Positions 433-52,080 of a stretch of DNA of 64,000 nucleotides are shown piece by piece. Numbering within the stretch: position 1 is the stretch's first letter; each line of letters starts with the position of its first letter. Source of the DNA: Polytrichum commune (lineage: Eukaryota > Streptophyta > Polytrichopsida > Polytrichales > Polytrichaceae); contig OX485806.1 of assembly GCA_950295325.1 (NCBI GenBank), positions 57,905,169 to 57,969,168 of the forward strand, in the 5' to 3' direction. The translations under genes were made by a program, and so were the position numbers. The notes beneath the pieces are model-generated. The model was not told the origin of the DNA. It did no database searches and was given only the letters and a program-made list of their open reading frames with translations.

Positions 433-748
433 GACATTCTTAACAATAACTTGATACGTCATTTTTTCTTGTTGGCCACCAATAAGGTCCACTTAATATG
501 GTGAACCAAGTATTTTCGAAGGTTTGATGATGGCCTTCTTGTTCATGTGCTTCCGCGATGATCTCCTCAATAACTTGTCCTACTATGCATGTTTTTTATT
601 CTCCACTTGGGCTAATTCGTATTAATTTCTCTCCATCCATGATGTAGGGTTCACTAACCCGTCTTATGCGTGTTTGTTCATCTTCCGTTGTTCCTATTGT
701 TAACAACTTTCCATACTTGAGGTATTCCTTAAATGGTTTTCTCCAATC
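430..748 (-). pseudogene. First copy of pre-integrase / integrase zinc-finger module, two stops
   Basis: The module begins inside the RT-RNase H reading frame with DWRKPFKEYL (first Asp codon 746-748). It meets an in-frame TAA at 596-598, then continues in the same frame through His-x5-His to YWWPT (470-484), a second TAA, and CPVC. The HHCC integrase zinc finger is therefore recognisable but interrupted. It lines up column by column with the copy at 44-322. In Ty3 elements this region normally occurs once. Confidence 0.6.
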
Positions 749-2986
749 TTCCGTTGGTTGAACATACACCATGTACCATTCTAGGCATGGTATCACACTT
801 TCTTCACCTCGTTCATCTTCTTCACTCCCTTGCTCATTTTTTTTCATGTAATCTTCTTCCTCTTTTAGTACTTCCATACAAAATAAATTGGCATCCGGTA
901 GTTGATCATTTAATCCGGTGGGTGGTTCTCCATTATCGATTCTTGAGAGGTGATCCGCCATCACGTGTCGTCTTCCGGGCATATATACAATCTCAAAATC
1001 GTATTCTTGTAGAAGAAACATCCATCTTGCGATTCTCCCCGAGATTATCATCCTATTTATCAAATATAGTAGTGCTTGGTGATCCACGTAGAACACAAAG
1101 TGATTTGCCAAAAGGTAATGTCGGAATTTGTTTACCGAATATACCATTGCCAATGCTTCCCGTTCCGTTGTGCTATAATTTTTCTCCGCTTGGTTTAGTA
1201 ATCGGCTTGCGTAGTATATAGGTGAATCAATATTTCCATTTACCTTTTGCGCTAGTACCGCTCCAATGGCTATGTTTGATGCATCACAATGGACATGGAA
1301 TTCCATTGACCAATTTGGAGCCATTAGTATTGGTGTCGTAGTTAGAAGTCTCTTGACTAGTTCAAATGTTTGTTGACATGCCGTTGTCCACTCAAATGCT
1401 TCATCCTTTTTGAGGAGAGCATAAAGAGGTCTTGTAATTTGCGCAAACATCCATACGAAATTCCTATGGTATGTTACCGAGCCTAAGAATGCTCGTAAAT
1501 TCTTGACATTGGTTGGTGGTGGTAAGTTTTGTATCACGAAGATTTTTTTGGGATCTATCAAAAGTCCCTCTTTGCAAACCACGTGACCAAGTAATCTTCC
1601 CGAGGTCACACAAATCATGCACTTCTCCGGATTAAGACTTAACCCACACTCTCTACATTGTTGGAAACAAAGCTTAAGGTGTTTGATGTGATCCGCCTTT
1701 GTCCCATATATACTAAAATCGTCCAAGAATACTTTCATAAAATCGTTTAGAAATTCCGCAAAGATTGTCATTACTCCTCTTTGGAAAGTGGATGGCGCAC
1801 TCATAAGTCCAAATGACATCACTCTAGTAGCATAAGCTCCCCATTCCGTAATAAAACAAGTTTTCGGTTGATCCTCCGGTGTTACCCTCACTTGATTGTA
1901 ACCACTAAACCGGTCTAGTAGTGACAACATTTCGTGTCCGGCTACAGTCTCAAGAATCTCCTCCGTGAATGGTAATGGAAATGGGTCAGATTTTGTCGCC
2001 CCGTTGAGTTTCTGATAATCTACGCATACTCTCAACTTCTCATTTTTCTTTGGTACTATCACTATAGGTGAAAGCCATTCCGCTCTATCTACCGGGTAGA
2101 TGAATCCAGCCTTGAGCAATTTGTCGATCTCCTCTTTCATCTTTGCCGCATAATTCGGATTCATTCGATATCTACTTTGCTTGATCGGCTTGGTATTTGG
2201 TTTGAGCTCTATCTTATGTTCACAAATGTGGGGTGGTATCCTTTTCATGTCTTCATACGTCCATGCGAATACATCCTTGTAATCCCTTAGTATCTCAATC
2301 ACTTGGTTTTCATAGGTCGGGTCAAGTTTCTTTCCTATTCGTACCATTTTGGGATCCTCCGTTGTCCCAAGGTTAATCTCCTTTATCATATCTTCATCTT
2401 CGATAGTCCATCCCGCGATTGTTTTTCCCTTAACCGCTTTGGATGCCGGTGTTTGATCGATTGCTTGTTCTCCTTCTTTTGTTTCATAGAAATGAGATGG
2501 ATAAACGGGCTTTTCTCCCATATCCTCTTTTTGTTTAGGAGTTCTTTCTTTGAGTTTGGGAACTTGTTTCTCCTTCTTGATAATTGCTTTTGATTTCTTG
2601 TTGACGTTTTCCACGTTTTCTCCTTCAATACTTGTCATGACCATATTGCATTCGGTTTCGTATAATTGCTTTAATCCATCAAGTTCCACATCCGCTATGT
2701 AATGTAAATTTGGATAAGCTTGATAAACTACTTGTTCTTCTTCATCGGTTAATCCGGCTTCCCAATCAAAACCTTCGATATTGATTGGTCTTGATGAATC
2801 CGGAAGTTTTGGTCTTCGATTAGTACCAATACATACACCTATTCCATTTTGATATAGAACTAGTTGACTCCTTCCCCAATCATGCTTGGCACGTGCTTGC
2901 TTAAGCCATGGTCGTCCAAGTAGCATCGAGTAACAATTTTCTTGATTCTCCATCTTCATTACCGTCACGGTAATCTTAAAGGTCAA
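596..2986 (-). CDS. pol: Ty3/gypsy pol: reverse transcriptase and RNase H
   Basis: A 796-residue open frame with the tail of the protease region (LLGRPWL near residue 25), then reverse transcriptase and RNase H. The RT has LRVCVDYQKLN, LLDRFSGYNQVRV, MSFGLMSAPSTFQR and the catalytic FLDDFSIYG (a YxDD variant with Phe-Leu before DD). RNase H shows HVHCDASNIAIGAVL, TEREALAMVYSV and FYVDHQALLYL. The connection domain ends in ADHLSRI, followed by the start of the integrase zinc-finger module. The listed start is a TTG and not a true initiation site: the upstream ORF runs into this one through a frameshift at an A6 tract (2995-3000), so both were one Gag-Pol frame. It copies element RNA into DNA in cytoplasmic particles. 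Confidence 0.85.
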   Translation of the reverse strand: MTFKITVTVMKMENQENCYSMLLGRPWLKQARAKHDWGRSQLVLYQNGIGVCIGTNRRPKLPDSSRPINIEGFDWEAGLTDEEEQVVYQAYPNLHYIADVELDGLKQLYETECNMVMTSIEGENVENVNKKSKAIIKKEKQVPKLKERTPKQKEDMGEKPVYPSHFYETKEGEQAIDQTPASKAVKGKTIAGWTIEDEDMIKEINLGTTEDPKMVRIGKKLDPTYENQVIEILRDYKDVFAWTYEDMKRIPPHICEHKIELKPNTKPIKQSRYRMNPNYAAKMKEEIDKLLKAGFIYPVDRAEWLSPIVIVPKKNEKLRVCVDYQKLNGATKSDPFPLPFTEEILETVAGHEMLSLLDRFSGYNQVRVTPEDQPKTCFITEWGAYATRVMSFGLMSAPSTFQRGVMTIFAEFLNDFMKVFLDDFSIYGTKADHIKHLKLCFQQCRECGLSLNPEKCMICVTSGRLLGHVVCKEGLLIDPKKIFVIQNLPPPTNVKNLRAFLGSVTYHRNFVWMFAQITRPLYALLKKDEAFEWTTACQQTFELVKRLLTTTPILMAPNWSMEFHVHCDASNIAIGAVLAQKVNGNIDSPIYYASRLLNQAEKNYSTTEREALAMVYSVNKFRHYLLANHFVFYVDHQALLYLINRMIISGRIARWMFLLQEYDFEIVYMPGRRHVMADHLSRIDNGEPPTGLNDQLPDANLFCMEVLKEEEDYMKKNEQGSEEDERGEESVIPCLEWYMVYVQPTEDWRKPFKEYLKYGKLLTIGTTEDEQTRIRRVSEPYIMDGEKLIRISPSGE

Positions 2987-3828
2987 ACCTCCAATTTTTT
3001 GATGATTCCTAGTGGCATTACTTTTCTTTGATCCGCCATTTTGATTGTAAATGGTGCCACTTCAAGTTGTTTTCCAATTCCTAACTTCTCCATCAAGGTG
3101 TCCGTAATAATGTTAACTCCCGATCCTCCATCTAGTAACACATTTGGTATTCGTCGATTCTTAGTCCATACCGCGATCATCGGCATTTCTTCATCAAAGT
3201 CTTTCGTGGCTATGAGATATGTTTGAGGGACTTCCCTCTCATCTCGCCCTTTCGTGTAAATTGCTTCCATTACGCTTCTTTTGCAATAAGGGGCTATCTC
3301 CAAAAGTTTCCCTATTGTGATATTTGCTTGAGTTGAATCTAGTACTTTTCGAATAATTTGTCCTACCTTCGATCGGGGTTCTTCTTCCGTCGCTTTTCTC
3401 CTAGACGACGTCCGGTACTCCGTTGCAAGATCTTCTGGCTCTAGTAGATCTTCGCCCGCTTCCCGTTGTATTTCCTTGATTGTGTTCGTTACTTGGCGGT
3501 GTATCTCCCGCTTCTTCTTCCATTCCGAGTCCTCCGGTGCATCCCGCACCTCCTGTGACTCATGTTCTTTTCGCCTATTCCTTGGCTCATTCTCATTCTC
3601 ACTAAGCTCGTCGTTTTCTTCATAGTGAATCTCCCGATTATTCTTTCGTTCTAAGTCCTCCGGTGCATCCCGCACCTCCTGTGACTTAAGTTCCTTTCGC
3701 CTTCTCCTTGGCGTCTTTGCATTTCCACTTTCTTTGTGGTGAATCTCCCGATTCTTCTTCCAATTCAAGTCCTCCGGTACATCCCGCACCTCCTGTGACT
3801 TTGATTCATCTTCACTTTCATCATACAT
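2983..3828 (-). CDS. Ty3/gypsy protease with repeat-rich N-terminal part
   Basis: A 281-residue frame. The first 110 residues are charged and contain three copies of a unit like SQEVRDAPEDLxxKxNREIH. The C-terminal half is a retropepsin-like aspartic protease domain with VLLDGGSGVNIITDTLMEKL, where DGGS takes the place of the usual DSG(A). It would cut the Gag-Pol polyprotein. The frame ends at TGA just after the A6 tract at 2995-3000, four bases into the RT frame; the family's continuous PR-RT polyprotein suggests a one-base indel there. Confidence 0.7.
   Translation of the reverse strand: MYDESEDESKSQEVRDVPEDLNWKKNREIHHKESGNAKTPRRRRKELKSQEVRDAPEDLERKNNREIHYEENDELSENENEPRNRRKEHESQEVRDAPEDSEWKKKREIHRQVTNTIKEIQREAGEDLLEPEDLATEYRTSSRRKATEEEPRSKVGQIIRKVLDSTQANITIGKLLEIAPYCKRSVMEAIYTKGRDEREVPQTYLIATKDFDEEMPMIAVWTKNRRIPNVLLDGGSGVNIITDTLMEKLGIGKQLEVAPFTIKMADQRKVMPLGIIKKLEV
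3499..3798 (-). repeat. Three-copy coding minisatellite upstream of protease
   Basis: Three imperfect copies of a roughly 20-residue motif (SQEVRD..ED....REIH) begin at residues 11, 49 and 91 of the protease ORF, with spacings of 38 and 42 codons. At DNA level a phrase reading tcctccggtgcatcccgcac recurs. Spacings are multiples of three, so the array expanded without breaking the frame. Confidence 0.7.
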
Positions 3829-4022
3829 AACCTCTATGGTATCCTTTTCATCATCACTATCACTATTCTCTGAGTCTTCGCTCTTTCTATCATCTCCTTC
3901 ATCTTCATCTTCCGATTCACTCTCTTCCTTAGAGTTTTTCTTTCGCCGCTCTTTGGGCTCTTGTCATCACACACACACTTGGTGTCACTACATTTGCCGC
4001 CACCGTGGGCTTCTTCGCGTAA

Positions 4023-4301
4023 TCATTCGTATTCATAGGGTGATGGTCGGACTAGGTTATCGTTTGTTAGTGATGGGGATGGTGATCTAGATATATCAAG
4101 ACCTTTGGCTCTTTGTCTTGCCCGTCTCTCGTATCGTTCCGCTCTCTCTCTTCTTTGCCTCTCGGCTCTTCCTTCCTCGCTATTGGGGTTTACTCCATGT
4201 TGCATACGGTTAATGTGCTTACGTTCGGCCTCGGCCTCTCTCCTAGATGGCGGCGAACGACTTCGCTCCCTAGTGTCTTCCTCTTCGTCGTACATTAACA
4301 C
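4023..4301 (-). CDS. Arg/Glu-rich linker between Gag and protease
   Basis: A 92-residue frame rich in Arg, Glu and Ser-Pro (MLMYDEEEDTRERSRSPPS at its start, then RAERQRRERAERYERRARQ). It lies between the Gag modules and the protease of the minus-strand Ty3 element. The composition is that of a basic, RNA-binding, nucleocapsid-like tail, but no CCHC zinc knuckle is visible. It starts inside the first copy of a 150-bp tandem repeat. Function is inferred from position and charge only. Confidence 0.4.
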   Translation of the reverse strand: MLMYDEEEDTRERSRSPPSRREAEAERKHINRMQHGVNPNSEEGRAERQRRERAERYERRARQRAKGLDISRSPSPSLTNDNLVRPSPYEYE

Positions 4302-4560
4302 TACTTAGCATGATCTTAGACCACCCTAGTTGGCCCTCCCGGCTTCAACTATGTGCATTCTATATTCACCCTTTCGCTAATACGGTTCTTTGGACACACT
4401 ATTCTTCTTGACTCAATTAGTTTTCTCTTCCTCTTCGTCGTACATTAACACTACTTAGCATGATCTTAGACCACCCTAGTTGGCTCTTCCGGCTTCAACT
4501 ATGTGCATCTATATTCATCCTTTCGTTAGTACGACTCTTAGGACAAACTATTCCTTCATA
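4277..4560 (-). repeat. 150-bp tandem duplication in gag-pol linker
   Basis: The segment beginning cttcctcttcgtcgtacatt at about 4277 recurs at about 4427 with only scattered mismatches, giving a 150-bp period (50 codons). Both copies contain ttagcatgatcttagaccac and the motif ggcttcaactatgtgcat. Confidence 0.85.
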
Positions 4561-4600
4561 AATTTTCTTTTTTTCCCCCAATGGATTCTCTAAAATTTCA

Positions 4601-5215
4601 CTAGTTAAACTTGATCAACCCTCGCTCACTATTTTCCAATTTCTCTAGTCCGTTGTAAAGTTTTATCATCACCCTTTCGAAGTACAAGTTGTATAATAAT
4701 CCTTCTTGCGGGTAGTGGTACCCTCTATGACTTGTGGCGCCTTTTGCCCACTTCCCGATTCCAATTCTCCCGTGATTCCACACTTTTGAGAATATCTTTG
4801 CTTGTAGTTCTTCCGGTAGTTCGTAGATTCTCCTCTCAAACTCTGATCGATAAGTAAATCCGATTTGTTTCTTGATAAAGTTCTTGGTTGCTTTTGTCTT
4901 ATAAACTTTGTGCATGTTCCACATCAAATCATGGAACCTTTTTACTCCTTCATATTGAGTTAGTACCTTTTTGTCCCAACTAAATTTCGGGTACTCCCAA
5001 GGCCAATGACTCACAATTCCTTTAGTGTCAATGTCTTCTATAAGATCATCAATCACGTATACTCCTTTCATGTTTGATTTCTCAATTTTCCTCAAAATCG
5101 CTCTTTCGACATGTGAGGCTTCAAGTGGTCCGATTAATTGCTTTTCTTCGGATCCTTCTTCTAATCTTTCTCGTAAGTTATCGTGGCAATGGATGTTCTC
5201 AAACCAAGGAATCAT
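4601..5215 (-). CDS. Gag-like (capsid) module, copy B
   Basis: A 204-residue frame. After an acidic N-terminal third it contains WPWEYP, RFHDLMWNMHKVY, IGFTYRSEFERRI, LPEELQAKIFSKVWNHG and GYHYPQEGLLYNLYFERVM. The same blocks occur in the same order in the ORF immediately upstream (5199-5600). Its place between the LTR/PBS and protease makes Gag the natural assignment, and the Trp/Tyr-rich helical pattern is compatible with a capsid domain, but I do not recognise a named family. It is one frame away from copy A, so a frameshift separates them. Confidence 0.5.
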   Translation of the reverse strand: MIPWFENIHCHDNLRERLEEGSEEKQLIGPLEASHVERAILRKIEKSNMKGVYVIDDLIEDIDTKGIVSHWPWEYPKFSWDKKVLTQYEGVKRFHDLMWNMHKVYKTKATKNFIKKQIGFTYRSEFERRIYELPEELQAKIFSKVWNHGRIGIGKWAKGATSHRGYHYPQEGLLYNLYFERVMIKLYNGLEKLENSERGLIKFN

Positions 5216-5600
5216 TGATCATAGCCGGTACCATTACTTGTGTGTAGTATAGGTCGTAAAGGAACCCTTCTAGATTATAATGGTACCCACTTTGATTTGT
5301 TGTTCCTAGCATGCACTCCCACAACGTATCCTTGCCTTTGTTCCACACTTTAGAAAAGATGATGGCTTGTAATTCTTTGGGTAAGTCTTTGATTCTTCTC
5401 TCAAACTCCGATCGGTACGTGAAACTAATCCGTTTTTCTTCAAAACTTCTCCACGCCTGATCGATGTATACTCGGTTCATACCTACCATTAAGTCAAGAA
5501 ATCGTTTGGTGCTAATCCATTCTCCCGCTTTGTTAGATTCTTTGATGTAATCAGGATATTCCCACAGCCAACTTGATATTAGTTCTTTTTGGTTGTTCAC
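5199..5600 (-). CDS. Gag-like (capsid) module, copy A
   Basis: A 133-residue frame with WLWEYP, RFLDLMVGMNRVY, ISFTYRSEFERRI, LPKELQAIIFSKVWNKG and GYHYNLEGFLYDLYYTQVM, matching copy B block by block. Equivalent Trp codons are about 565 bp apart (near 5564 and 4999). The ORF overlaps the start of copy B by 17 bases in another frame. It is probably the 5' half of one larger gag gene that arose by internal duplication. Confidence 0.5.
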   Translation of the reverse strand: MNNQKELISSWLWEYPDYIKESNKAGEWISTKRFLDLMVGMNRVYIDQAWRSFEEKRISFTYRSEFERRIKDLPKELQAIIFSKVWNKGKDTLWECMLGTTNQSGYHYNLEGFLYDLYYTQVMVPAMINDSLV

Positions 5601-8929: not shown

Positions 8930-8963
8930 ACACTACTAAGTTTCCCATATCCAACCTGCTAAG

Positions 8964-9680
8964 GTGTTCCACCTTGCAGGTAAGATTTTGGAAGGGAAAA
9001 CATCCATATATTTTCTAACAGTGGCTCAGGCTACTGCAGATACCTCCACCATTGAGGATCCAGAGGAGGTGGCCAAGCGGCGAGCAATGCTTGCAGCGGA
9101 GGCCATTGTGTTTTTCGACGAACACATCTCTCATGGTGAGGGGCCTTCCACATCTTATGACTTACCAGTGGCCGCGGGAGCAGCTTACCTGTCCAATGTA
9201 GCTGCTAGACATGCTTGCAAGCGCCAAGGCATTCAACCAGGCGTCGTACGCATGGTAAATGACACCGGCATTCTGGTAGTCGGTCGGACTGGGGTCAACA
9301 CCATTCAATTTGCTCCCCATTATGTGATGATGGATTCAGGGGCCCAGCCAGTCATGATCGGCAAGAGGCTTGCCCATGAGTTGAGGTTGACAGCCGAGGA
9401 TTTGGCTCCTTGCCCATTCACCATCGTCATGTCCATTGGCCATGTGGAGGGGGCCACTGGTTATACTCGGGAGCCATTACAACTTACGTTCCGAATGAAA
9501 CCTGAAGATCCACCCGAACCTCTTCTTCTTAGGTGCGCGGTGACAAATGCGACCAACTACGACATTTTAGTTGGTCAGTAGGCCCTCTACCCTCTCGGTT
9601 TTGGTTTAAATAACTGGACCGAGGAGGCGTGGATCCGACCAGGGTGGTCGGCTGGCGACGGCAGGAGAGAGCTTATTCCT
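8964..9680 (+). pseudogene. Retropepsin-like aspartic protease of the methyltransferase element
   Basis: The frame shows YVMMDSGAQPVMIGKRLA, with the catalytic Asp-Ser-Gly near residue 122, and TNATNYDILVGQ, the usual ILG-type motif near the end of retropepsins. A TAG at 9579-9581 interrupts the frame, which then continues without shift (ALYPLGFGL, EAWIRPGW) into the methyltransferase region. The listed ATG is unlikely to be the true start, because gag should precede it. A CAG|GTAAG splice-donor-like sequence lies at 8977-8984; whether it is used is unknown. Confidence 0.7.
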
Positions 9681-11095
9681 GTGGAGTTCGCGGCTGCCGC
9701 GACCATAGCACCATTATCCATGGTCTTTGGATGTGGTGCTATTATTGACACATTGACACGTGGTTCAATCTTATTGGAGGAGTCACTAGCATTCATGGGG
9801 GGCACTGAGGACCAGCGGGTTATGTCACCTAAGGATTTGTTGGTGCGCCATCCCAAGGATCCTCTTCCTCCCTGGCGCGGTTCCGAAGAGTTGTTCCAGA
9901 TTTGTGAGGATATTGTCTTGTCTTTGCATTCGATGACACCAATCATACCGGACACCCAACCGGGGTTGGCACATCCCATACCATGGCGTCCACCAGACAA
10001 GGGGATTACCTTGGTGGAGCTATTTGGAGGAATCGGCACAGGATTGGCGGCCATGTTGGAGGTTGGCCTCACGGTAAAACAATATGTTTATGTGGATACC
10101 AACCCGGTGTCCACTCGTGCGGCTCGTCACCATTTACACCAGTTGATGGTGTTGTACCCACAGCAGTAACCACCGACTGCCATTCGTGGGTGTTTTGGAC
10201 GTCTTCCTCGTGATATTACACTTATCAGTGAGGAAAACTTACGGAGGTTGGGTCCCGTGGACTTGGTGATCACGGGATGGCCATGCCAGGGCCACTCACG
10301 TGCTGGAGCAGGTCAAGGTTTAGAGGATCCCATGTCAGGTCTTTTCTGGGACCTCATTCGGCTCATGTAGTGGTGGTTTGTCCACCAACCTTTGCCTCCA
10401 GGTTATATATTCAAGAACGTACCTCTGTTGGGAGACTCTCGAGTTAAGGTGTTGGAGGGCATACATTATGTCTACCAGCACCTTGGAGATTCCATCTTTG
10501 TGGATGCCGCGGGGCTTGGTTCGTATACACACCGCCCTCGGTGGCTTTGGACCAACCTCGCACCTCTATCCACCTTAGTTGTATCCTATTGCCCCTACCT
10601 TCGGACCAGAAGGTAGATGATATATTGGATCCAAACCAGACCTCTTTGCCAGTAGTTCGAGATGATCTACCCCCATTAGCATCAGTTAACAAAATGGGGG
10701 CACCTCGGAGGGCCTTCCCGACATTTATGACTTTTCCACAGTCATTCGCATTCCGCGATTGGGGGCCTAGCATGGTGTGGGGTGCTCACACTCAAAGCCA
10801 CTGCGAACCATATGCCGATGAGCGAGAGCGTGCCATGGGATTCCGCACTGGAACCACAGCAGCTCCTGGCCTTTTTGATGGCCAACGACGGTTCGTGTTG
10901 GGCCAAGCCATGGATCTTAACATCATGGTGTGGACTGTTGGTTTATGCCTTGCATTGCAAAGGCATCGTGGTGACCAGTTGTTGTCTCTGGGGGCAGAGG
11001 ACTCTAGTCAGGGGGCACAACGGTCCACATCCATGGAGGAAAGAGGGGAAGCCAAGGCTGAAGGAGCCAAACAAATTTTTCAATTCGGGCAATAG
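9681..11095 (+). pseudogene. C5-cytosine DNA methyltransferase domain embedded in pol
   Basis: The conserved motifs occur in order. Motif I is ITLVELFGGIGTGLAAMLE (S-adenosylmethionine binding, near 9999-10060). Motif IV is DLVITGWPCQGHS, with the catalytic Cys in PCQ (near 10260-10300). Motif VI reads FKNV instead of ENV (10410-10421). A GSYTHRPRWLWTNL block (near 10518-10560) resembles motif VIII of DNMT3/DRM enzymes. Motif IX is ERERAMGFRTGTT, and motif X is FVLGQAMDLNIMVWT (near 10891-10935). The enzyme would methylate cytosine in DNA, possibly the element's own cDNA. Stops at 10167 and 10368 and a frameshift near 10580 break it. The spacing and the FGGIGTGL / GLFWDLIRL blocks look closer to DNMT3 than to DNMT1, although the catalytic motif is PCQ rather than PCN. 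A frame change near 11085 joins it to the linker before RT. Confidence 0.85.
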
Positions 11096-13107
11096 GTGAT
11101 AGAAGTGCTCAACCGGTTTTTGCTGCTTTGGCTTCCGATTTTGGGAAGAAGGAGGTACAGAGAATGTTTCCACGAATGTTTTCAGTTGATTCTTTGCCTC
11201 TAGTGGTGGCTTCATCATCAACCAATGATGGTGATGAAGGGAGACTAGACTCTTCTATTGGCACTGAGGCTGGGGGCATGGTGCATGCTCCCTCTCATGA
11301 GTAGCAGTTAGAGTCCGTGCTAGCATCAGGTGGTTTTTCTTTGGTGGAGAGGGAGACCATAGAGTTTGATGATAGGCCATTGGAGTTGGACCCCCATCTC
11401 ACTAGTGCTGAGACACGGAGGATACGGGTGTTCATTCGCTCGTACCGTGGGTGTTTTGCTTTTAGTCTTCAAGACCTTGAAGGCTACAAAGTAAAACCTA
11501 TCCACATTCAGTTGGAGAACCGCCATCTCATTTTTCAGAGACCTTACAAGCTCATTGTCGTTGAGAGGATTGGTGTCTAGGCTCGTTGCCGTGAGCTCTA
11601 AGTAGCGAGACTAATCGAACTCTCCAACGGGGAGTATGCTTGTGCTACGGTTATGCCATCGAAGAAGGACATCTTTGGCAATTGGACGGAGAAGCAGATA
11701 TGCGGGGATTACCGTCCAGTTAACCGGAAGACCAAGTCGGATCGATATCCCATGCCAATCCCGAAGGAGTTGTTCGATGCCCTCGGATTTGCTCAAGTCT
11801 TTAGCACTTTGGACTTGAATTCCGGCTATCACCAACTCCTATTACTCGTGGGAGACCGGGTGAAGACTGCATTCTGGGGAGTTGATCAAGATTGGAAGGA
11901 TCAACTATATCATTGGAAGTTTCTTCCATTTGGCCTCAAGAATACACCTGTTGAGTTTTAGAGAGTGATGGACCAGGTCCTCTCTAGCTTGCCATTTTCT
12001 CGGTGTTACATTGATGATGTGATCATCTTCAGCAGGACACCACAAAAGCATGTTAGGAACCTGCAAACCATTTTTGAACGCTTGCAACGGTGGGGATTCT
12101 GCTTACACCATAGTAAGTGCAAGTTTTTCCATGACCAGCTGGCATACCTAGGTCATATGATTATTCCGGGAGGTCTTGGGGTGCAACAAGCTAAGATGGA
12201 CGCCTTGCAGAAGATCCCGGCACTAGTCGATGTACCGAGACTTCGTGCTTTCTTGGGCTTGGCGAATTACTACCGATGATTCATGAAGAACTTTAGCTTG
12301 ATCGCCAAGCCTCTCACCATTCTCACGAGCAAGGACCAACCTTGGACCAGGGGTCGTGAACAACAACAAGCATTCGAAACATTAAAGCAGAGATTGGGTA
12401 CAGCTCTAGTGCTTCGACGTCCAGATATCACCAAATCTTTCCAGTTGCATACGGACTGGAGTTCTTTGGGTTTAGGAGCAGTTCTCACTCAGATAGACGA
12501 CGTTGGTCGGGAGTATGTTGTTGCTTACGCTTTGCGAAGCAACAACAATGCGGAGGCCAATTATTCGTCCTATGAGGGGGAGGCGTTGGCAGCGGTATGG
12601 GCTATTGCTCATTTCCGGCCATATCTCTATGGTCAGCGCTTTACTTTGGTGACTGATCATCAACCTTTACGGTGGCTCATGGAGTCGGATAAGCTTACTG
12701 GCAAGCTTGGCAGGTGGGCTTTATTGCTCCAGGAGTACGACTTTGAGGTGGTAAACCGTACTAGGATTACCAACCTAGATGCAAATGGACTCTCACGCAA
12801 TCCAAGTCCTTCGGATGAGGACTTGACCGGGGCTAGGTGGCATGGAGATTGTGATCGAGAAGCGGTTCTAGGTTGGCACGCGGCTGCTTACCTCATTTTA
12901 TTTTTTGGTGGGGCTATTGAGGTTCCGATGCAAGGCTCGGATAATGAGACTGATCGACCTCAAGCTATTGCGGATATATGGGAGGATTTTCCCGTGCTGC
13001 AAAATCTTCAACAGGGGACCTTTCCTTCGTCTACATCGACAATGGAAAGGGACAGGATTGGACATCGAATAACAAGGTTCCGTTGGGAGAACGGTTTGTT
13101 ATTTTGA
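11096..13107 (+). pseudogene. pol: Reverse transcriptase and RNase H of the methyltransferase element
   Basis: After a linker the RT shows ICGDYRPVNRKTKSDRYPMP, TLDLNSGYHQL, WKFLPFGLKNTP and the catalytic CYIDDVIIFS. RNase H shows LHTDWSSLGLGAVL (DWS at the usual DAS position), YEGEALAAVWAI and LVTDHQPLRWLM. The connection region ends in ITNLDANGLSRNP. In-frame stops lie at 11302, 11578, 11599, 11959, 12277 and 13105 with the frame kept between them, so damage here is mostly point mutation. RT and RNase H have the usual Ty3 order, but the methyltransferase stands between them and the protease. Confidence 0.85.
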
Positions 13108-14361
13108 TTGTGGTCGGATGGGACAAGGCGTATTGTCCCTAGACCGGATCAGAGGGCCTCCTTGGTGCGACAATTCCACGAGGAACTTGGCCATTTTGGC
13201 ATATGCAAGACACATTCGATGTTGCGTGGCCAATATTGGTGGACTGGCATGTATCAACAGGTGACTGCTTATGTCGGGAGGTGTGAAGTTTGTGACCGGG
13301 TCAGATCTAGCTTTAACACCTTGTCACCTCAATTACAGCCCTCACCTATCATGGGATTGGGCTACCGTTGGTCGGTGGACTTTGCGGGACCGTTGGTCGT
13401 CACGCCACGTGGAGCAAAGTACGTATTGGTGATGGTGGAGCATTTTAGCAAGTGGATTGAGCTTGTTGTTTTACCCCCAAACTCTGCGTAGTTGGCCGCT
13501 GCCGCCTTTTTGGATCGTGTGTTGGCACGTTTTGGAACACCGGCTCAGGTATTGACGGACCAAGGGAGGGAGTTCCTCGGTGTTTTTGAGGAGTTGTGCA
13601 CCAAGGCGCTCTTAGATCACCGCACCACCTCTCGGGATCATCCGGAGGCGGATGGTTTGGCTGAACGGGTTGTTCAGACAACCAAGCATGGCTTGAGGAA
13701 GTATGGATATTATAACCTTACTGCTTAAAATAACATTTTCATCAAAATAGCTCGGAAGTTACCGCTCACCGCTCACCGCTCGCAAAATAGCTTCGTCTTA
13801 CTTCGGGAAAACCATCAGGATTGGAACCTCATGTTACCTTGGATTGCTATGGGCTATCGATTTAGTAGGCATGCATCTTTGGCATCCTACAACCCGTATC
13901 AGTTGTTGTATGGACGTGAGCCTATACTCCCGAGTTTTATCCGGGAAAAACTAGCTTTTGTTGTGGACTTGGATGACCCAAACATTTAGGTAGAGTGTTT
14001 GCAGGAGCGGGCCCAATTTTTCTAGAGGGCCATACCTATGGCCATAGAGAATTTGTCCATTGCTCAGCACCGTGATACATTGCGTTATGCACACATTCGC
14101 AGTGATGCTTTCCGACCTCAGTTGCGGTGATTTTGGCAGGGAGATTATGTTTATCTCCAACATGAGGCGCCTACGACATTGGATGTCAGGGCGGGACGCA
14201 CCATCCTTCGGCTGAAAGAGGTGTTGCCGAGTGGTTTGTTATTGTTGGAAGGAAAAGATGGCACGGACTGTCGCAAACATTCCAAAAATTATGCCCCATG
14301 TCATTTATCCATTGAGGGTGCAGTTCATCCTGAAGTGGTCGTCGTACGAAAGGGTCTTCCA
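13108..14361 (+). pseudogene. Integrase of the methyltransferase element
   Basis: The zinc finger is seen as His-x3-His (FHEELGHFG) plus CEVCDRV, with QYWWTGMYQQV between. The core has the three catalytic acids of the DDE family: WSVDFAGPL, VLTDQGREFLG and HPEADGLAERV. A 90-bp insertion (13708-13797) separates the core from the C-terminal part, which resumes with ENHQDWNLMLPWIAMGYRFS and includes PYQLLYGREPILPS. Stops at 13489, 13987, 14023 and 14128 interrupt it. The protein would insert the cDNA into the chromosome. The C-terminal region leads straight into a PHD finger. Confidence 0.8.
13708..13797 (+). repeat. 90-bp filler-like insertion in the integrase
   Basis: Between the conserved RKYG and LLRENHQDW the frame contains 90 unrelated bases, including a TAA, a triplicated gctcacc-type unit (13760-13781) and two copies of caaaatagct flanking it. 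The patchwork looks like filler DNA from end-joining repair rather than a transposon, as no inverted ends or clear target duplication are visible. Confidence 0.5.
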
Positions 14362-14541
14362 TGTTTTATGTGTGGAAAGAAGAAAATAGCGGCTATTATG
14401 TTGTTGTGTGATCAGTGTCAACGTGGTTGGCACATGGCATGCTTGAGGCCACCTTTAACTTCTCTATCATCTGGACAATGGAGTTGTCCTCGCTCTCGAG
14501 GATCTTCGGTATTTGGTGCTTCCACCAATCGTACTCAATGA
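14362..14541 (+). pseudogene. PHD finger at the C-terminus of the integrase
   Basis: The Cys/His pattern is CFMC, eleven residues, CDQC, then HMAC and WSCPRS. This is the C4HC3 zinc-binding order of a PHD finger, with the Trp two residues before the penultimate Cys (W-S-C) typical of PHD domains. The last Cys is a Ser in this copy, so zinc binding is probably lost. PHD fingers read histone H3 tails. At the end of an integrase it could steer integration, as chromodomains do in chromoviruses; that role is an inference. The ORF ends at a natural-looking TGA. Confidence 0.8.
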
Positions 14542-14814
14542 TTTTGTGTGGTTTTCATCATCTTGTGCCTGCCCAAATGGAAAATGAGGAGTTATGGCTT
14601 AGAGACGCAATCAACATAAGGCGGTGGAATTAATTCCTTGGAATCTGATGGCCAAACATTAGAGGCAATTAAAGACGGGGCTCACATTGCACCCAGCCTA
14701 GAGTTCCTTGGAATGACGTTCACCACACTAGTTAGTTGCGGAACAATCTTTCATTATCCATGCCCTTTGGATTGGCATTGGTCCTAGCTGCTTGGCAAGA
14801 CTCCATAGTCAGCT

Positions 14815-14825
14815 GAAGGGGGGTA
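14815..14825 (+). promoter_or_regulatory. Possible polypurine tract
   Basis: The tract gaaggggggta lies about 270 bp downstream of the PHD finger and a few bases before the first 97-bp repeat, which begins TGTGTTG. This is where the plus-strand primer and the 3' LTR start would be expected. Confidence 0.35.
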
Positions 14826-14833
14826 TATCAAGG

Positions 14834-15373
14834 TGTGTTGTTTATGTGTGATTTTGCTATGTTTTAATGTTGTTTGTTAGTGGTGGTTGGTACTCGAGCT
14901 GCAATGACACACGATCACTATTTACACGACAACTGTCACGATATGCGGCTTCGACGTCCATACCTTATCCGTTGAGATTCATTCATTTAGATTTGGATGA
15001 ATGAATCTTAGTTGTGGAGAGAAAGGATCCTAAGTGAGGAGCATCCACCTTGGCTTGGCATTTTTGCCAAGTCAAGTCTTGTAAGTGAGTGTGTGGAGAG
15101 AGCTTGTGTGAGGTGAAGATTGCATGTTTTTGCAATAAATCTTGAGTTCTTCTTCCCCTACTTACACTCTTGGATTCTCCCGTGGTGGAGTGAGAGATAG
15201 CTTGACTCATTGTGTGCATTTGAAAAGAGATTTAGAGCTCTTATGAGTATTTGACTCTCTTACTTCTCTGTCAATGTGTGTTATTTATGTGTGACTTTGC
15301 TATATTTTAGTGTTGTTTGTTAGTGGTGGTTGGTACTCGAGCTGCAGTGACACACGATCGTTATTTACAAGAC
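14834..15373 (+). repeat. Pair of 97-bp direct repeats, period 443 bp (possible LTR remains)
   Basis: The segments 14834-14930 and 15277-15373 are about 90% alike and share ggtggttggtactcgagctg. The first starts with TG right after a purine tract, so it may be the start of a 3' LTR. A second start 443 bp later would then be a tandem or partly lost LTR. The spacer holds an 11-bp inverted repeat (14976-14986 with 14997-15007). No matching 5' LTR was found. Confidence 0.5.
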
Positions 15374-15375
15374 AG

Positions 15376-27513: not shown

Positions 27514-30500
27514 ATGGACAAGAATTCAAGAGACGAACTCCTGCACCTACAACTGTGGGACCTAGAGGAGAAGGAGGAAAATGGAATGTTCTTGTCATCA
27601 TATCCATGTCCATGTAAAAACTGCATGGGTGGGAGGGTTCTATCAAGAGAAACCATTCGCAAGCATCTAAGGCATTACAAACGCGATCCACAATTCCATA
27701 GGTCTATACTGGTACGTGTTTGTATTCCTAAAATGTGGTTGGAATTAGTACATCTAAACCCTAACCCTATAATGTCAGTATTTGACTATCCATAGTCACA
27801 TATGTCAATGTTGTGACTACAGACTGGTCTTACTGGCCAAGAAAGAACACCAAATACTGATGACGTTCTTCCAAGCACAATGGACGCCGAACACAAGGAA
27901 AGCAGCGGCGTAAGTGAGCATGAGAATGATGAAGTCGAGTTTGAAGTGCAGCAGATGATAACAGAGTGTTTTGGTCGGTTTGAGAACAACAACAATGATG
28001 GCCAGGAGGATATCATACTTGAAGATGAACGGGAATTTATGGTTGAGGAAGGAATGGATCTACTAGAAGAATCTGCAATCCCACTGTATGAGGGCAACAA
28101 AACAAGCCGAGTAGTTGCGGTCATTCTCCTTTTAAATTGCTTTGTTGTCTTTGGAGTCTCCAATGCATGCGCTACAGAATTGTTGAAGTTGTTGTCGAAG
28201 CTATTACCTATCAAAAACACTCTTCCAAAATCTTCCTATGAAGCTCGTAAGTATCTAAGGCAACTCGGATTATCATTTGTTTCAATACATGCCTGTATAA
28301 ATGGGTGTTGTTTATTCCGAAAGGAGCTAGAAGGCGCAATGAATTGTCCAGAATGTGGACAATTGAGGTACAAATCTGAGTCAAGCAGGACACCAATGAA
28401 AGTTCTGCGGCATTTTCCACTCATACCACAGCTACGAAGGATGTATCGATGTACATCTCTCGCAAAATTAAATAAGTGGCATATCGAACGAAAGAATTGT
28501 AATGGCAACGTGGAATGCGTTCCAGACTCAAAGGCATGGAAACACATTGACTTTGTATATCCACGGTTTGCATTGGAGAAAAAGAACATACGACTAGGAC
28601 TTGCTCTAGACGGTGTCAATCCATTCTCAAACCAATCCCTAAGTCATTCCACTTGGCCAGTTGTACTAATGAACTACAATTTGCCACCATGGTTGGTGAC
28701 AAAGCGGTTTTTCTTAATGTTGGCCCTCATCATTCCTGGGAAAGAGAGTGTCACATCTGAAAATGTGGACGTGTACCTTGCTCCATTGATTGAAGAATTG
28801 CAGCAACTTTGGGAAGGCATTGATGCAGTAGATGCATCTGCAGAGAGTGTGAATAGGAGTTTCACGTTGAAGGCCATCCTCATGTGGTGCATCCATAACT
28901 TCCCGGCATATGGTTTAGTGTCAGGGCAAGTGACAAAGGGGTACAGAGGGTGCACCGAATGTGGTCCTAGTGTAACAACCCGACGTTCTGCAGCGTTAAT
29001 GAAGAATGTATATTTAGGGCATCGTCGTTTCTTGAACCGAACCCATCCATATCGAAGATTGCAGAGAGCATTTGATGGATCAACCGAGACCCGTCCACCA
29101 CCAAGACAGCTAAGTGGTCGTGACATAGTCCGTTATGCGATGAGGAGAGAAAATTGGTTGGTTGACTCCCCACGAAACAGACCAGGGGGGTTAAACGATC
29201 CAATATATGACACAGGCGTGAAATGACTGTCTGCATTATTTGCACTTCCATATTGGCAGGTGAGTGTTTAGTTCCAAACCCATTTTCATATCCTCATGAC
29301 TTAAAATAAGACTAACAATAGCCAAAACATAACTCAAAGCTTCAAAAATTGGTTTGGAGGACTACCGGTGGTCAACTTCTAGTGACATCCATGCAAACTT
29401 GACTATAGTCAAATATGATTGACTACACATTGTCAATGCTAATATAATAGTGACTGTATGATGACTAAGAGTACAAATATAATTCCACTAATGGGAGCCA
29501 CTGTTTGTATGCAGTCTCTTACAATAAGGCATGTGCTCGATGCAATGCACTGTGAAAAGAACTTATGTGAGAACATCATGAAGACAATTTGGGGTTTAAA
29601 GGATAACCTCAAAGTACGGATGGATCTAGCGGAAGAAAACATTAGGCCGGAATTGCATGCAGTTTCTGGCGGTGCAAGGGGAACCTTGTTCATACCAAGA
29701 GCTCTGTATATTCTATCAAGAGCAGAGAAGGCTGTGTTTACAAACATCATTCGTGGATTGAAGACTCCTAGCAATTACGTGGGCCAACTGTCTAAAAGAA
29801 TCACAGAAGATGGAGAGTTACGAGGAATGAAGAGTCATGACTACCACATTCTAATGCAACAAATCTTGCCATTGTGTTTACGAACGCTCTTACCAAAGGA
29901 TGTCCAAATTTCCATTATATGGATATGCCGAGTCTTTGCCCGTTTGTGCGTGAAGTCGGTGGATCCTTCAAGCATGACTGATTTGTTCAATGAGACAACC
30001 GTTACTATGTGTATGTTGGAAAGGGTCTTACCACCAACATTCTTTGATGTCATGTCCTACTTGCCTATTCACTTGGTGCAACAGTTAGACATTTGCAGAC
30101 CAGTGCACACCCGGTGGATGTACCCAATGGAACGGTACCTGAAAACTCTAAAAGGATACGTGCGTCTTCGAAGCAATCCTAAGGGCTCTATGGCACAAGG
30201 CTACATCATGGATGAAGCAATGGGATTTTGTACTAAATATATGCAACAATGTTGTGAAAGTGAGCGTCGTGTGTGGGACGACAAAAAAGAACCCGCAATG
30301 AATAGCGAGGTCATAGAAGGAAATGGATGGCATCGGTTGTTGCCAGACGAACTACGTCTTTGGATACATGAATTTGTGTTGAACAATGCGGAGCCATTGC
30401 AAGTACTATGTGTTGTTGCTCCTGTGACTACATTGTTGACTAGTCATAGTCATAAGCATCCATAGTGTGACTAACAACAATATTATATATGCTTCGCAAA

Positions 30501-49592: not shown

Positions 49593-51629
49593 ATGCCGGA
49601 AGCACGGGAAAAGGATCGGAGGGAACCCATCCCGATTCCGCTCAAAGCCCTCATCCCTGCAATTCCGAGGGAGGACGGGGAGCTGCAAGAGCTAGCGGAG
49701 GATCTCCAGGTTATGGGTTGCGCGGGGTTTCTCTCCAAACCCTGGAACCTCCAAGCGGAAGATACCCTCCGGGAGTTCAAGTTTGAGAGAGGGAATCAGT
49801 GGCTAGGAACCAAGAGGAGGGATCCGGATAGTTGGACTCCGGATGTTTGGAATAGGGTTTACGGGTTTCAGAGGGGAATTGCAGAGGGATGGGCCGGCCG
49901 CCGCGATGGCCTGTTCCCCGGAAAGTTTAGAGGGGACGCGAATCCGAAGGACGGCTTTCACCCCGGGAATTGCCGGAACCTTAGAGAGCGGAGGGTCTTA
50001 GAGTTCCTCCTGCCCATCCTTAACCCGGACAAGCCTAAGCGGATTAGCCTTACCATGGCTAACACCCTGTTTGGTGCAATGTCCGGAGTCCGGCCCGTGA
50101 ATTGGGGGTTCATAATTCACGAAATAGTAGGGTGGGCCTTCCCCAATGTAGGCCGGAAACCCTCCTTCCTCTCCCCCTTCATTCTGCACCTCTATCAGCA
50201 CTTTGACTGCATCACGGCCGAGGAGGAGGACCTGCTGACAATAGCGGTGGACAAGGTCACCTACAAGCTCCATCCGGAAGTCGGAGACCTCGAGACGGAA
50301 ATTTCCAGCGACCCCATCATTCCGGAAGTGCCTCCCTCTTCACCCGGAAGCCCGCCGCCGACCCTCCAGAGACCAATCTCTCCTCCTCCTCACTATCATC
50401 CGGAACCAGGACCCAGCCGGGAGACCACTTGGCGGAATGTGGATCTCATCGCTTGGGACTTTCCGGAAAACCCCTTCAAGCGGGTCCAGGAGGGGCTGGA
50501 GGACTTGCAGATCCAGTACTTCCGGCTGGAACACATCGTCCGGGGAGCGAACCAGGCTCTGGACGACTGCGGACCCAAAAATATTCTCCGGGAATTGGCG
50601 AAGAGGGCGGACAGGAAGGAGCTCGAGCAAGCTAAGACGGAGAATGCTCACCTCACCGCGCAGGTAGCGGCCATGACTCAGGAGCTAAGTTAGAAGAGCG
50701 AGGAGATCCGGAAGTACCACGCGGAGCAGGCAGTGGTATTCAGTCGAATCCAGAAGCTGGTGGGACATCCGGTAGAGATTGTCAACAAGGCGCATCTCTA
50801 CGACCGGATGATGGAGTTCGGAGAACTAGCTTCTGCCAGGCAGACCCTCCCCATCCTCGTGAAATACTCACGGACGATGAAGGATCTCCTGGCGGAAATC
50901 CAGAAGGTGGTTCCGCCAAGCGGAACACCCCGGCGGGTACTCTATCCGGGTCCTCCTGGGTCACCAACCGGAACCCTCTACGAGGTGGTTGGTGAAGTCG
51001 CCCTGGTCCAGAATCCGCCAACGGCTGCAGGACCCAGCCAGCAGGGAGACGACTCTCGGCCTGCCAATTTCGGAAGAGCCCCGGAAAGGATCCGCTCTCC
51101 CCAAGTGAGGCAGAAGAGCACCGGGTCTGTTAGATCCGGACGAGGTTAGTCCCCTGTTCCGTGGACCTCGGATCGGTCCCGGACTCCGGACAGAGCTTGG
51201 ACCCCGATAAGGCACCAAACTTCGGACCGAGAGGCAACTCCGAGTAGGGGTAAGGCCCCTATGACCCAAACCTCGCCATCGTCTCCTTCGGACTGCCAAA
51301 TGGTGAGCCCATTCCTTCCGCCACCCTCAAGGGTGGCCTCCAACAGGGATCCACGGACTACCTCGATCTCGGGCGGACAGAATCCGGAACAGCGCACCGG
51401 AAGCGATCCTTCCCCGATTCGGAGCGTCCGGAAGGGAAATACAGTTTTCGAAACACCGTGGACCGAAGGAGCAGCGGACTCGGAGGATGAGATCGCCCCT
51501 TCTCCGAACATGAGGAGGATGCTTACACGACTACAGAAGGCCTCGCCGGGAGGGGGTTCATCCACCGTCAGTGGACTCGGCAGCCATTCGAAGGAGGGAG
51601 CAGCTCTGAAGAAGCACCGCTCTTCTTAG
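49593..51629 (+). pseudogene. Gag-like / plant transposon protein, two in-frame TAG stops
   Basis: A frame of 678 codons broken only by TAG at 50691 and 51147. The first ATG after the TATA-like box is used (MPEAREKDRREP). Residues 30-230 hold DGLFPGKF, KRISLTMANTLFGAMSGVRP and FILHLYQHF..ITAEEEDLL, the pattern of 'putative plant transposon protein' domains encoded by plant retroelements near gag. This is followed by a Pro-rich linker (PPSSPGSPPPTLQRPISPPP), a helical coiled-coil-like segment (ELAKRADRKELEQAKTENA) and a Ser/Pro/Arg-rich tail. No zinc knuckle. The role in particle formation is inferred. Confidence 0.6.
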
Positions 51630-52080
51630 CTTAGGATGTTAGTTAGATTAGTTAGGCAGAATAGAGGTAGGAAGATAGGACTTAGGAGTTTTTGAGGATG
51701 AGGAATAAAATTCTCCCTTGGGTTTTGTCAGCGGAAAATCCGGATCTTGATCCGGGAAATCCGGGAGGACGGAAGCAATTAGGCTTTTCTTAGCGGCGGC
51801 CGCCTGGGCCGCCACCCTCAGGTTAGGGATTTTTGGGCCTCTATTGAAGGCTGAATAAGGAGCTGGAGAGGGGTTCCTTCTCCATTGTTGTATTCTGATT
51901 GCTCAAACTCTAATAAACTCTTTGCTTTCTCACTCCTTGACTTTCCTTGATTGATTTTGCGTACGAATGATTCGGAGATTGTTAGCGGAGGAGAGAGAGC
52001 ATGAGGGGATAGGAGTTCCGGATAGGACATGGGAGAAGAGACCCGGATTAGATCTAATTATGGCCTTGCGAACCCTCTCT

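What the first reader, a model, noticed from the sequence alone, without database searches (positions are those of the whole stretch)
9681..11095. DNA methyltransferase embedded between protease and RT of a Ty3/gypsy element
Sequence: methyltransferase motifs I (LVELFGGIGTGL), IV (GWPCQGHS), a VIII-like block (SYTHRPRWLWTNL), IX (ERERAMGF) and X (GQAMDLN) follow an aspartic protease and precede an RT on the same strand, mostly in one frame. Known: Ty3-type elements with captured C5 methyltransferases were described from charophytes and dinoflagellates (de Mendoza et al. 2018), with the idea that they methylate their own cDNA. Inference: this element is a relative of those or an independent capture, and gives a retrotransposon-borne CG methylation writer.
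Basis: partly seen in the sequence, partly recalled or inferred. Interest (0 to 1): 0.9.

Follow-up and report, generated by a model that had tools for sequence, protein, structure and literature searches.

The report
DNA-methylating gene inside plant retrotransposon
A dead copy of a plant jumping gene carries a DNA-methylating enzyme of the DNMT3 type; the same genome holds well over a hundred sister copies, some recent, in which the enzyme sits beside the coat protein just before a probably leaky stop signal, so the element may pack it in large amounts.

Summary
Confirmed and extended. Window 9983-11110 is a decayed C5 cytosine methyltransferase (MTase) between a retropepsin and a Ty3-type RT. 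Sequence profile and predicted fold match DNMT3 entries best. Not a chance insertion: 96 of 138 listed RT places in this genome have a listed MTase upstream, and 9 of 9 sampled from the other 42 have one too, one in part. The window copy is dead (5' truncated, stops, frameshift, motif VI Glu replaced); siblings have open frames and, in three copies, 99.4% identical repeats.

Beyond the finding: ORF1 (Gag-protease-MTase) and ORF2 (RT-RNaseH-integrase-PHD) share one frame, separated by TAG-CARYYA, a known leaky-stop signal (TAG in 41 of 42 mapped copies, hexamer in 40 of 42; 7 of 7 held copies of a second family). The MTase should then be made at Gag level (inferred). Repeats are split (A...B-A-B, as in DIRS) yet flanked by 4-bp duplications. 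Named relatives: Marchantia, Haematococcus, Cymbomonas. Closest published kind: KnitGypsy-Dnmt3 of Klebsormidium. CG specificity, self-methylation and host name remain unshown.

The parts
8943..9979 (+). Remnant of ORF1 from its residue 595 on: end of the Gag region, retropepsin (DSG motif about 9333-9341) and linker; broken by a stop at 9579-9581
   Evidence: tblastn of L011 ORF1 and blastn of the PR part, 80.5% identity; weak Asp_protease_2 E 0.0057, under its cut-off; DSG read, stop
9983..11110 (+). Decayed DNMT3-type C5 methyltransferase (motif order I to X, not rearranged); stops and a frameshift inside; motif VI reads FKNVP, as in 4 of 23 copies, where 17 of 23 read FENVP
   Evidence: PF00145 E 9.4e-10; 80.2% nt identity to the L011 MTase part; motif counts
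11302..11310 (+). TAG CAGTTA: the family's ORF1/ORF2 boundary, UAG-CARYYA leaky-stop type
   Evidence: aligned to the same place in 41 other mapped copies
11305..14538 (+). ORF2 remnant: RT, RNase H, H2C2 and rve integrase, C-terminal PHD finger; an insertion of about 90 bases near 13709-13797
   Evidence: 87-92% nt identity to L011; Pfam RVT_1 2e-06, RT_RNaseH 3.1e-35, Integrase_H2C2 9.1e-18, PHD 3.2e-10
14362..14493 (+). PHD finger at the C-terminus of the integrase part
   Evidence: PF00628 E 3.2e-10, residues 78-121 of window:14131-14541
14539..14931 (+). 3' tail ending in repeat B1 (14828-14931)
   Evidence: 91.9% identity; direct repeat D1
14933..15268 (+). Repeat A2, about 335 bp; the 5' copy A1 was not found in the window
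   Evidence: 90.5% identity to A2 of L011; 89.9% to A1 of L025, the only match in the window
15269..15375 (+). Repeat B2, 3' end of the element
   Evidence: 93.5% identity; second copy of D1

Best explanation
The window holds a dead, 5'-truncated copy of an abundant Ty3/Gypsy-type retrotransposon family whose other copies include young ones with open frames. SHOWN from sequence: layout A1 - 1.55 kb leader - ORF1 (Gag with zinc knuckles, retropepsin, DNMT3-type MTase) - in-frame TAG-CARYYA - ORF2 (RT, RNase H, DDE integrase, PHD) - B1 - A2 - B2, with 4-bp target duplications in the three copies whose two ends are held. INFERRED: ribosomes stop at the UAG most of the time and read through in a minority, so Gag-protease-MTase is the major product and the RT-integrase-PHD extension the minor one. 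The MTase would then enter the particle at about Gag stoichiometry, unlike RT and integrase. Inside the particle or with the pre-integration complex it meets the element's new cDNA; the most likely job is de novo cytosine methylation of that cDNA (de Mendoza et al. showed such activity in yeast for two Dnmt3 domains of another element class), while the PHD finger helps choose chromatin for integration. The last two steps are not shown here. Confidence: anatomy and DNMT3 type about 0.95, readthrough about 0.8, an active MTase in young copies about 0.7, cDNA methylation as its main role about 0.35.
For: PF00145 in the window and in the genome (123 of 123 scored, of 353 candidates, over the cut-off). 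Profile A1: DNMT3A 68.6 bits, E 1.9e-18, against 4onj (DRM, recalled) 32.6 and HhaI 30.8, in the 60 rows shown of 233. Foldseek: the 50 rows shown, of 514 matches at E up to 10, are all entries of DNMT3A, 3B or 3C, many with DNMT3L, over 281-294 columns. Motif order I-X, unlike the host exon L051 where IX-X precede I. MTase beside RT: 96 of 138 RT rows, and 9 of 9 sampled of the other 42, L052 in part. Median dN/dS at dS over 0.15: MTase 0.215 (73 pairs; 15 clean of 23 copies), RT 0.081 (34 pairs; 14 of 36), Gag 0.129 (46 pairs; 11 of 15). Stop: TAG 41 of 42, CARYYA 40 of 42, both 39 of 42; 2 of 44 copies tried did not map; second family TAGCAATCA in 7 of 7 held. First Met of L011 ORF2 is residue 117. 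Split repeats and 4-bp duplications. A1/A2 99.4% identical in three copies.
Against: The window copy is dead. Four of 23 copies, the window among them, read FKNVP at motif VI. MTase dN/dS is above that of RT and, at dS 0.02-0.15, about that of the protease (0.337 against 0.318); the pairs are not independent. In family 2 a Met lies at residue 14 of ORF2, so reinitiation is not excluded there. No transcript, protein or methylation data. The C-to-T footprint is CG plus CHG, explained by host methylation. The KnitGypsy-Dnmt3 domain gave no detected activity in yeast, which its authors call inconclusive (PMC5890265).
Confidence: 0.8

Rival explanations
1. The MTase methylates RNA: made at Gag level, it acts on the packaged genomic RNA or on a host RNA, not on cDNA.
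For: Gag-side position fits a protein that meets RNA in the particle; some C5 MTases act on RNA (recalled: DNMT2).
Against: Among the rows shown, sequence and fold are closest to DNMT3 DNA enzymes.
Confidence: 0.12
2. The MTase acts in trans on the host genome: it adds methylation near new insertions or changes host silencing, so that element copies are tolerated.
For: A PHD finger follows the integrase, which could hold the complex on chromatin; 186 distinct MTase places in two truncated lists.
Against: Old copies carry a CG and CHG footprint as ordinary plant methylation would leave; K. nitens, with a similar element, has a land-plant-like methylome (PMC5890265).
Confidence: 0.2
3. The domain is kept for a non-catalytic reason, for example nucleic acid binding or assembly of DNMT3-like filaments in the particle.
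For: 4 of 23 copies lack the motif VI Glu and MTase dN/dS is 2.6 times that of RT; two distant relatives, P0108 and P0111, read ECQ where the family reads PCQ.
Against: Motif IV GWPCQGHS is kept in 22 of 23 copies, ENV in 19 of 23, and the motif I, VIII, IX and X strings of L011 exactly in 16, 19, 21 and 20 of 23; the motif IV Cys and Gln are invariant across the 14 rows of A1.
Confidence: 0.15
4. The TAG is not read through; ORF2 is expressed by reinitiation, an internal start or a spliced RNA.
For: A Met at residue 14 of ORF2 in family 2.
Against: Same frame; the known leaky hexamer kept in two families with different hexamers; first Met at residue 117 in L011 ORF2; MTase and RT fused in one ORF in P0107, P0108 and P0110.
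Confidence: 0.15
5. Chance: an unrelated MTase gene fell between protease and RT in this one copy.
For: None beyond the broken frames in the window.
Against: MTase in the same place in the copies examined and in proteins from other sources.
Confidence: 0.01

Closest known systems
KnitGypsy-Dnmt3 of Klebsormidium nitens (de Mendoza et al. 2018, PMC5890265)
   Same: Gypsy domain set with an unrearranged Dnmt3-type MTase in the polyprotein, purifying selection on it, and repeats arranged as in DIRS (text parts 1-3 of 7 seen).
   Different: Here the MTase lies on the Gag side of a leaky stop and a PHD finger follows the integrase; the paper speaks of the Pol polyprotein ORF, and its main text has no 'PHD' and one 'stop codon', on another element. 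Figures were not seen. No K. nitens sequence was at hand, so kinship by tree was not tested.
SymbioDIRS-Dnmt3 of Symbiodinium (same paper)
   Same: Retrotransposon-borne Dnmt3; two copies shown by the authors to methylate CG in yeast.
   Different: Tyrosine recombinase, not a DDE integrase; here rve integrase (E 1.8e-14) and 4-bp target duplications.
Plant DNMT3 (Physcomitrella PpDNMT3, Yaari et al. 2019, PMC6453930, passages)
   Same: Unrearranged DNMT3-type domain.
   Different: Host gene with C-terminal DUF3444; the element's pieces gave no DUF3444 match.
UAG-CARYYA leaky stop, tobacco mosaic virus type (virus recalled; hexamer from Harrell 2002 as cited in PMC3441728, passages)
   Same: TAG CAATTA, CAGTTA and CAATCA all fit.
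   Different: Placed after an MTase in a retroelement; readthrough not measured.
Gammaretrovirus-type Gag/Pol in-frame stop (recalled)
   Same: One frame, UAG between a Gag-side and an RT-side polyprotein.
   Different: Here protease and MTase are on the Gag side; a downstream pseudoknot was not tested.

Membership tests
Ty3/Gypsy (Metaviridae) LTR retrotransposons | Order PR-RT-RNaseH-INT with rve integrase after RNase H | tested here: met
   Pfam on window and L011 pieces; best solved-structure match of profile A1 is Ty3-G Gag-Pol
Ty3/Gypsy (Metaviridae) LTR retrotransposons | The same LTR at both ends | tested here: not met
   A1 at the 5' end, B1-A2-B2 at the 3' end; split repeats, so an odd member at best
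KnitGypsy-Dnmt3 | Gypsy element with unrearranged Dnmt3 in the polyprotein | tested here: met
KnitGypsy-Dnmt3 | DIRS-like repeat arrangement | tested here: met
   the paper's Fig. 4 legend
KnitGypsy-Dnmt3 | Sequence kinship with the K. nitens element | not tested
DNMT3 | Motifs I-X in canonical order, closest to DNMT3 among C5 MTases | tested here: met
   (solved structures only; no host DNMT3 gene compared)
DNMT3 | De novo DNA methylation activity | not testable with these tools
   needs an assay
DRM | Motifs IX-X before motif I | tested here: not met
   the element's MTase runs I to X; host exon L051 is rearranged
DIRS | Split direct repeats | tested here: met
DIRS | Tyrosine recombinase, no target duplication | tested here: not met
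   rve integrase; 4-bp duplications in 3 of 3 copies with both ends held
UAG-CARYYA readthrough | UAG followed by CARYYA, downstream frame open | tested here: met
   (39 of 42 mapped copies with both)
UAG-CARYYA readthrough | Measured extension product | not testable with these tools
   needs reporter or proteomics

The most novel reading that the evidence does not exclude
A large green-lineage assemblage of integrase-type retroelements with split, DIRS-like ends carries one DNMT3-type MTase lineage that changed place once, between a site after RNase H and a site between protease and RT. In the bryophyte branch it came to lie upstream of a leaky UAG, so that the particle contains a DNA methyltransferase at Gag, not Pol, stoichiometry: the element delivers its cDNA already methylated and packed with the writer. 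(Split ends were seen only in this genome; the direction of the change is not rooted.)
Probability: 0.3. Interest if true: 0.87.

Novelty: new variant of a known kind. Interest (0 to 1): 0.72.

Why it matters
It takes MTase-carrying Gypsy elements from one charophyte to a probable land plant with recent copies, to Marchantia, and to green algae, so the association looks old and kept by selection. A Gag-level MTase makes the question 'why would a transposon methylate itself?' testable with a reporter, a particle proteome and cDNA methylation. Split repeats with a DDE integrase and 4-bp duplications also point to an unusual replication route.

Tried and rejected
Chance insertion: rejected. DRM, CMT or bacterial dcm origin of the MTase: DRM order not met; no row named DNMT1 or chromomethylase among the 60 shown of 233; NCBIfam dcm matches five relatives at 38-48 bits, below its cut-off of 100.65. 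The TAG at 11093-11095 as ORF boundary: I first took it so (note), then rejected it after mapping the family's stop. My first reading of simple 334-bp LTRs and an 8.3 kb element (note) gave way to split repeats. No relative of P0090 in viral contigs or prokaryote genomes, no phage match for the window piece. Host DNMT3 gene: a motif pattern search was sent six times and never answered, so single against repeated capture was not tested. CpG depletion as a sign of self-methylation: inconclusive (0.67-0.78 in seven copies; one other Gypsy of the window 0.949, another element in L009 0.654, the whole window 0.64). Tree limits: 66 of 126 MTase domains plus the host DRM exon (bootstrap not settled; DRM branch length 9.6, no safe root), and 33 of 85 RT-RNaseH rows plus two families of this genome and one other Gypsy (that Gypsy, on a long branch, falls on the 'before RT' side). 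Of the 23 rows labelled 'before RT' only five have an RT seen after the MTase; the other 18 were labelled so because their ORF holds the MTase and no RT. One of these, P0211 (Haematococcus), is nearly identical to P0160 of the other order; I take it as a gene-model artefact. Papers: split repeats with DDE integrases, (listing only); in-frame gag/pol stops, (listings; PMC3441728 passages); plant or moss MTase retrotransposons: apart from de Mendoza et al. no listed title or abstract start reports one. Searches listed none. PMC6338049, PMC11244446 and PMC8616336 were listed but not opened.

Full report
OBSERVATION. The three-frame translation of the window shows the quoted motifs. PF00145 matches 10173-10367 at E 9.4e-10. 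The other pieces of the domain gave no Pfam match, but blastn and tblastn against an open sibling copy (L011) cover the MTase from 9983 to about 11110 at 80% nucleotide identity, with a change of frame near 10560-10590 and stops inside. Upstream lies a retropepsin remnant, downstream RT, RNase H, integrase and a PHD finger, then repeats to 15375. No match to the leader, to Gag before residue 595, or to the 5' repeat was found.

THE FAMILY. The window is G000:C4:57905169-57969168 of a 407.8 Mb assembly. A relative of the MTase (P0090) matched at 119 of 119 places scored out of 592 candidates. PF00145 matched over its cut-off at 123 of 123 scored out of 353; at least one of these is a host DRM exon (L051). 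The two lists make 186 distinct places, that exon included; both lists are truncated. From the RT side, 138 places were scored of 1632 candidates, all at 88% identity or more; 96 of 138 have a listed MTase within 5 kb upstream, and of the 42 without, 9 were fetched and all 9 have it, L052 only in part. Several copies have ORF1 open over 1366 codons and ORF2 over 1048. A second family (open frame 1386 in nine rows) has an MTase about 62-63% identical to the first.

ANATOMY. In L011 the order is: 5' repeat A1 (only its end is held), leader of about 1.55 kb, ORF1 with a zinc knuckle (zf-CCHC E 0.0012; a second one read by eye), retropepsin (0.00057) and MTase (9.4e-13), TAG, ORF2 with RT (1.6e-30), RNase H (8.6e-38), H2C2 (2.2e-17), rve integrase (1.8e-14) and PHD (6.2e-11), then B1-A2-B2. 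The zinc-knuckle and protease scores are below Pfam's cut-offs. The three copies with both ends held (L015, L025/L026, L028/L027) show 4-bp duplications (CCAC, TGTC, ACCC), read by eye. Elements begin TGTC and end GACA, and the B1/A2 joint reads GACAG-CTGTC, as if the two ends had been joined in a circle. B1-A2-B2 was seen in 10 of the 16 single-stretch loci L009-L024 and in both two-stretch copies; L018, L019 and L024 show one B only, L009, L020 and L023 no B within the stretch. Directly after A1, 8 of 9 copies carry 12-15 bases that are the reverse complement of a site inside A (own A1 or the A2 of L026; L024: 9 bases). This could be a self-primer as in Tf1 (recalled), and is an inference.

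THE LEAKY STOP. The ORF1 stop could be mapped in 42 of 44 copies tried, the window among them. It is TAG in 41 of 42 (L047 has CAA). The next six bases are CAATTA 34, CAGTTA 5, CAATCA 1, CATTTA 1, TAGTTA 1, so CARYYA in 40 of 42, and both features in 39 of 42. Of the nine further stretches, eight carry TAGCARYYA at 120-123 bases before the RT start (L052 does not). The second family has TAGCAATCA in 7 of 7 held copies (L049, L050; L054, L055, L057, L059, L060). CARYYA after a stop is a known readthrough signal (Harrell 2002, as cited in PMC3441728, passages). ORF2 follows in the same frame; its first Met is residue 117 in L011, but residue 14 in the second family. In P0107, P0108 and P0110 from other sources MTase and RT are fused in one ORF. 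Predicted outcome: Gag-protease-MTase as major product. No expression data exist here.

WHAT THE MTASE IS. P0090 against solved structures gives DNMT3B first, E 1.7e-06. A profile of 14 relatives gives DNMT3A 68.6 bits, DNMT3B 58.6, 4onj (DRM, recalled) 32.6, HhaI 30.8 among the 60 rows shown of 233. An AlphaFold2 model of P0080 (mean pLDDT 77, pTM 0.69, 14 sequences; the protein stops before motif X) matches DNMT3 entries in all 50 rows shown (TM by query 0.50-0.58, 19-22% identity). The host's own DRM exon is rearranged (L051), the element's MTase is not. Selection: median dN/dS at dS over 0.15 is 0.215 for MTase, 0.081 RT, 0.129 Gag, and 0.184 for integrase on only 3 pairs; at dS 0.02-0.15 it is MTase 0.337 (26 pairs), protease 0.318 (87), RT 0.117 (47), Gag 0.416 (6), integrase 0.177 (14). 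Pairs are not independent and dead copies raise the values. Motif IV is intact in 22 of 23 copies, ENV in 19 of 23, FKNVP in 4 of 23, the window included. Two distant relatives (P0108, P0111) have Glu for the Pro of motif IV but keep the Cys.

RELATIVES. The ORF1 search gave 21 proteins: nine with 59-63% identity over the scored part, four with 49-52%, two named Marchantia polymorpha (MARPO_0008s0049, MARPO_0020s0163; 40 and 36%), and six others. In 7 of 13 of P0091-P0103 motif X could be found by pattern, and ORF1 ends 117-162 residues after it, against 117 and 133 in the two families here; the other 6 were missed by that pattern. A search with the MTase part of P0111 gave 112 proteins, P0111 itself included, with names Haematococcus lacustris (three) and Cymbomonas tetramitiformis (one). 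Domain order over the 132 of 134 rows with a hit (P0091-P0222 and the two ORFs of L011; P0106 and P0109 had none): RT-RH-MT-IN-PHD 66, MT alone 19, MT-IN-PHD 13, RT-RH-MT 11, RT-RH-MT-IN 9, RH-MT-IN-PHD 6, MT-RT-RH-IN 2, RH-MT-IN 2, MT-IN 2, MT-RT-RH 1, and RT-RH-IN-PHD 1 (L011 ORF2). So the rows that show the order mostly carry the MTase between RNase H and integrase, and the elements of this genome and P0107, P0108, P0110 before RT. The MTase tree puts 22 of 23 'before RT' rows in one clade (100/99), but 18 of the 23 were labelled so only because no RT lies in their ORF, and P0211 falls elsewhere; the RT tree splits the two orders (100/98; 5 and 30 rows). The bootstrap had not settled. This fits one MTase lineage with one change of place; without host DNMT3 rows two captures from similar donors are not excluded.

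MECHANISM. Shown: anatomy, dN/dS below one, DNMT3 type, conserved leaky-stop sequence, recent copies. Inferred: readthrough, Gag-level MTase in particles, methylation of cDNA. C-to-T difference from L011 (direction not polarised) in the RT piece is 16/87 at CG, 16/76 at CHG and 18/250 at CHH for the window copy, 20/88, 19/76, 21/252 for L044 and 16/88, 13/76, 17/252 for L034; L017, L024 and L043 show little contrast, and L015, the youngest tested, 0/88, 4/76, 4/252. In the MTase piece the window has 10/80, 15/89, 30/362. This is what host CG and CHG methylation leaves, and it neither shows nor excludes methylation by the element. de Mendoza et al. showed CG methylation in yeast by two SymbioDIRS-Dnmt3 domains, and none detected, inconclusively, by the K. 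nitens one.

KNOWN OR NEW. The kind is known: Dnmt3 in a Gypsy element with DIRS-like repeats, from Klebsormidium nitens (PMC5890265; parts 1-3 of 7 and passages seen). A 2025 survey repeats streptophytes and dinoflagellates as hosts (PMC12344493, passages). Not found by my searches (listings and some passages; open-licence papers only): such elements in mosses, liverworts, chlorophytes or prasinophytes, the Gag-side position before a leaky stop, and the PHD finger. Hence 'new variant of a known kind'.

HOST. Not named. A DRM exon (my reading of the motif order) points to a streptophyte, since DRM was found restricted to them (PMC12344493, passage). Seven large contigs of 42-78 Mb and the kinship with Marchantia suggest a bryophyte, perhaps a moss; this is a guess.

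Noticed in passing
window 599-5218, - strand: A second Gypsy element (RT E 4.5e-23, RNase H 1.1e-33 in the 821-aa ORF), its RT at most 38% identical to rows of the RT tree; no MTase match in Pfam on three ORFs there.
   Followed up: partly
window 27817-30462, + strand: CACTA-type transposon: Transposase_21 (tnp2) E 6.6e-73 and DUF4218 E 3e-33 in neighbouring ORFs.
   Followed up: no
window 56040-56564, + strand: Probable host gene piece with R3H and SUZ domains.
   Followed up: no
L009 2093-7787: Another repeat-flanked element (repeats 977 bp, 98.8% identical) lies inside the locus of an MTase-bearing copy; bases after its second repeat look like an initiator Met tRNA primer site (recalled).
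   Followed up: no
L011 57-71 and the other copies with the A1 end held: 12-15 bases after A1 are the reverse complement of a site about 124-140 bases into A, in 8 of 9 copies: possible self-primer.
   Followed up: partly
P0111 and 65 other proteins: A large group of RT-RNaseH-MTase-integrase-PHD polyproteins, with named members in Haematococcus (P0160, P0183); Cymbomonas P0204 has the order without a detected PHD.
   Followed up: partly
P0108 and P0111, motif IV: Glu in place of the motif IV Pro (ECQ) with the Cys kept; how common this is among the algal rows was not counted.
   Followed up: no
window 50001-52000: G+C rises to 0.566, the highest of the 2-kb steps, with overlapping long ORFs on both strands.
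   Followed up: no
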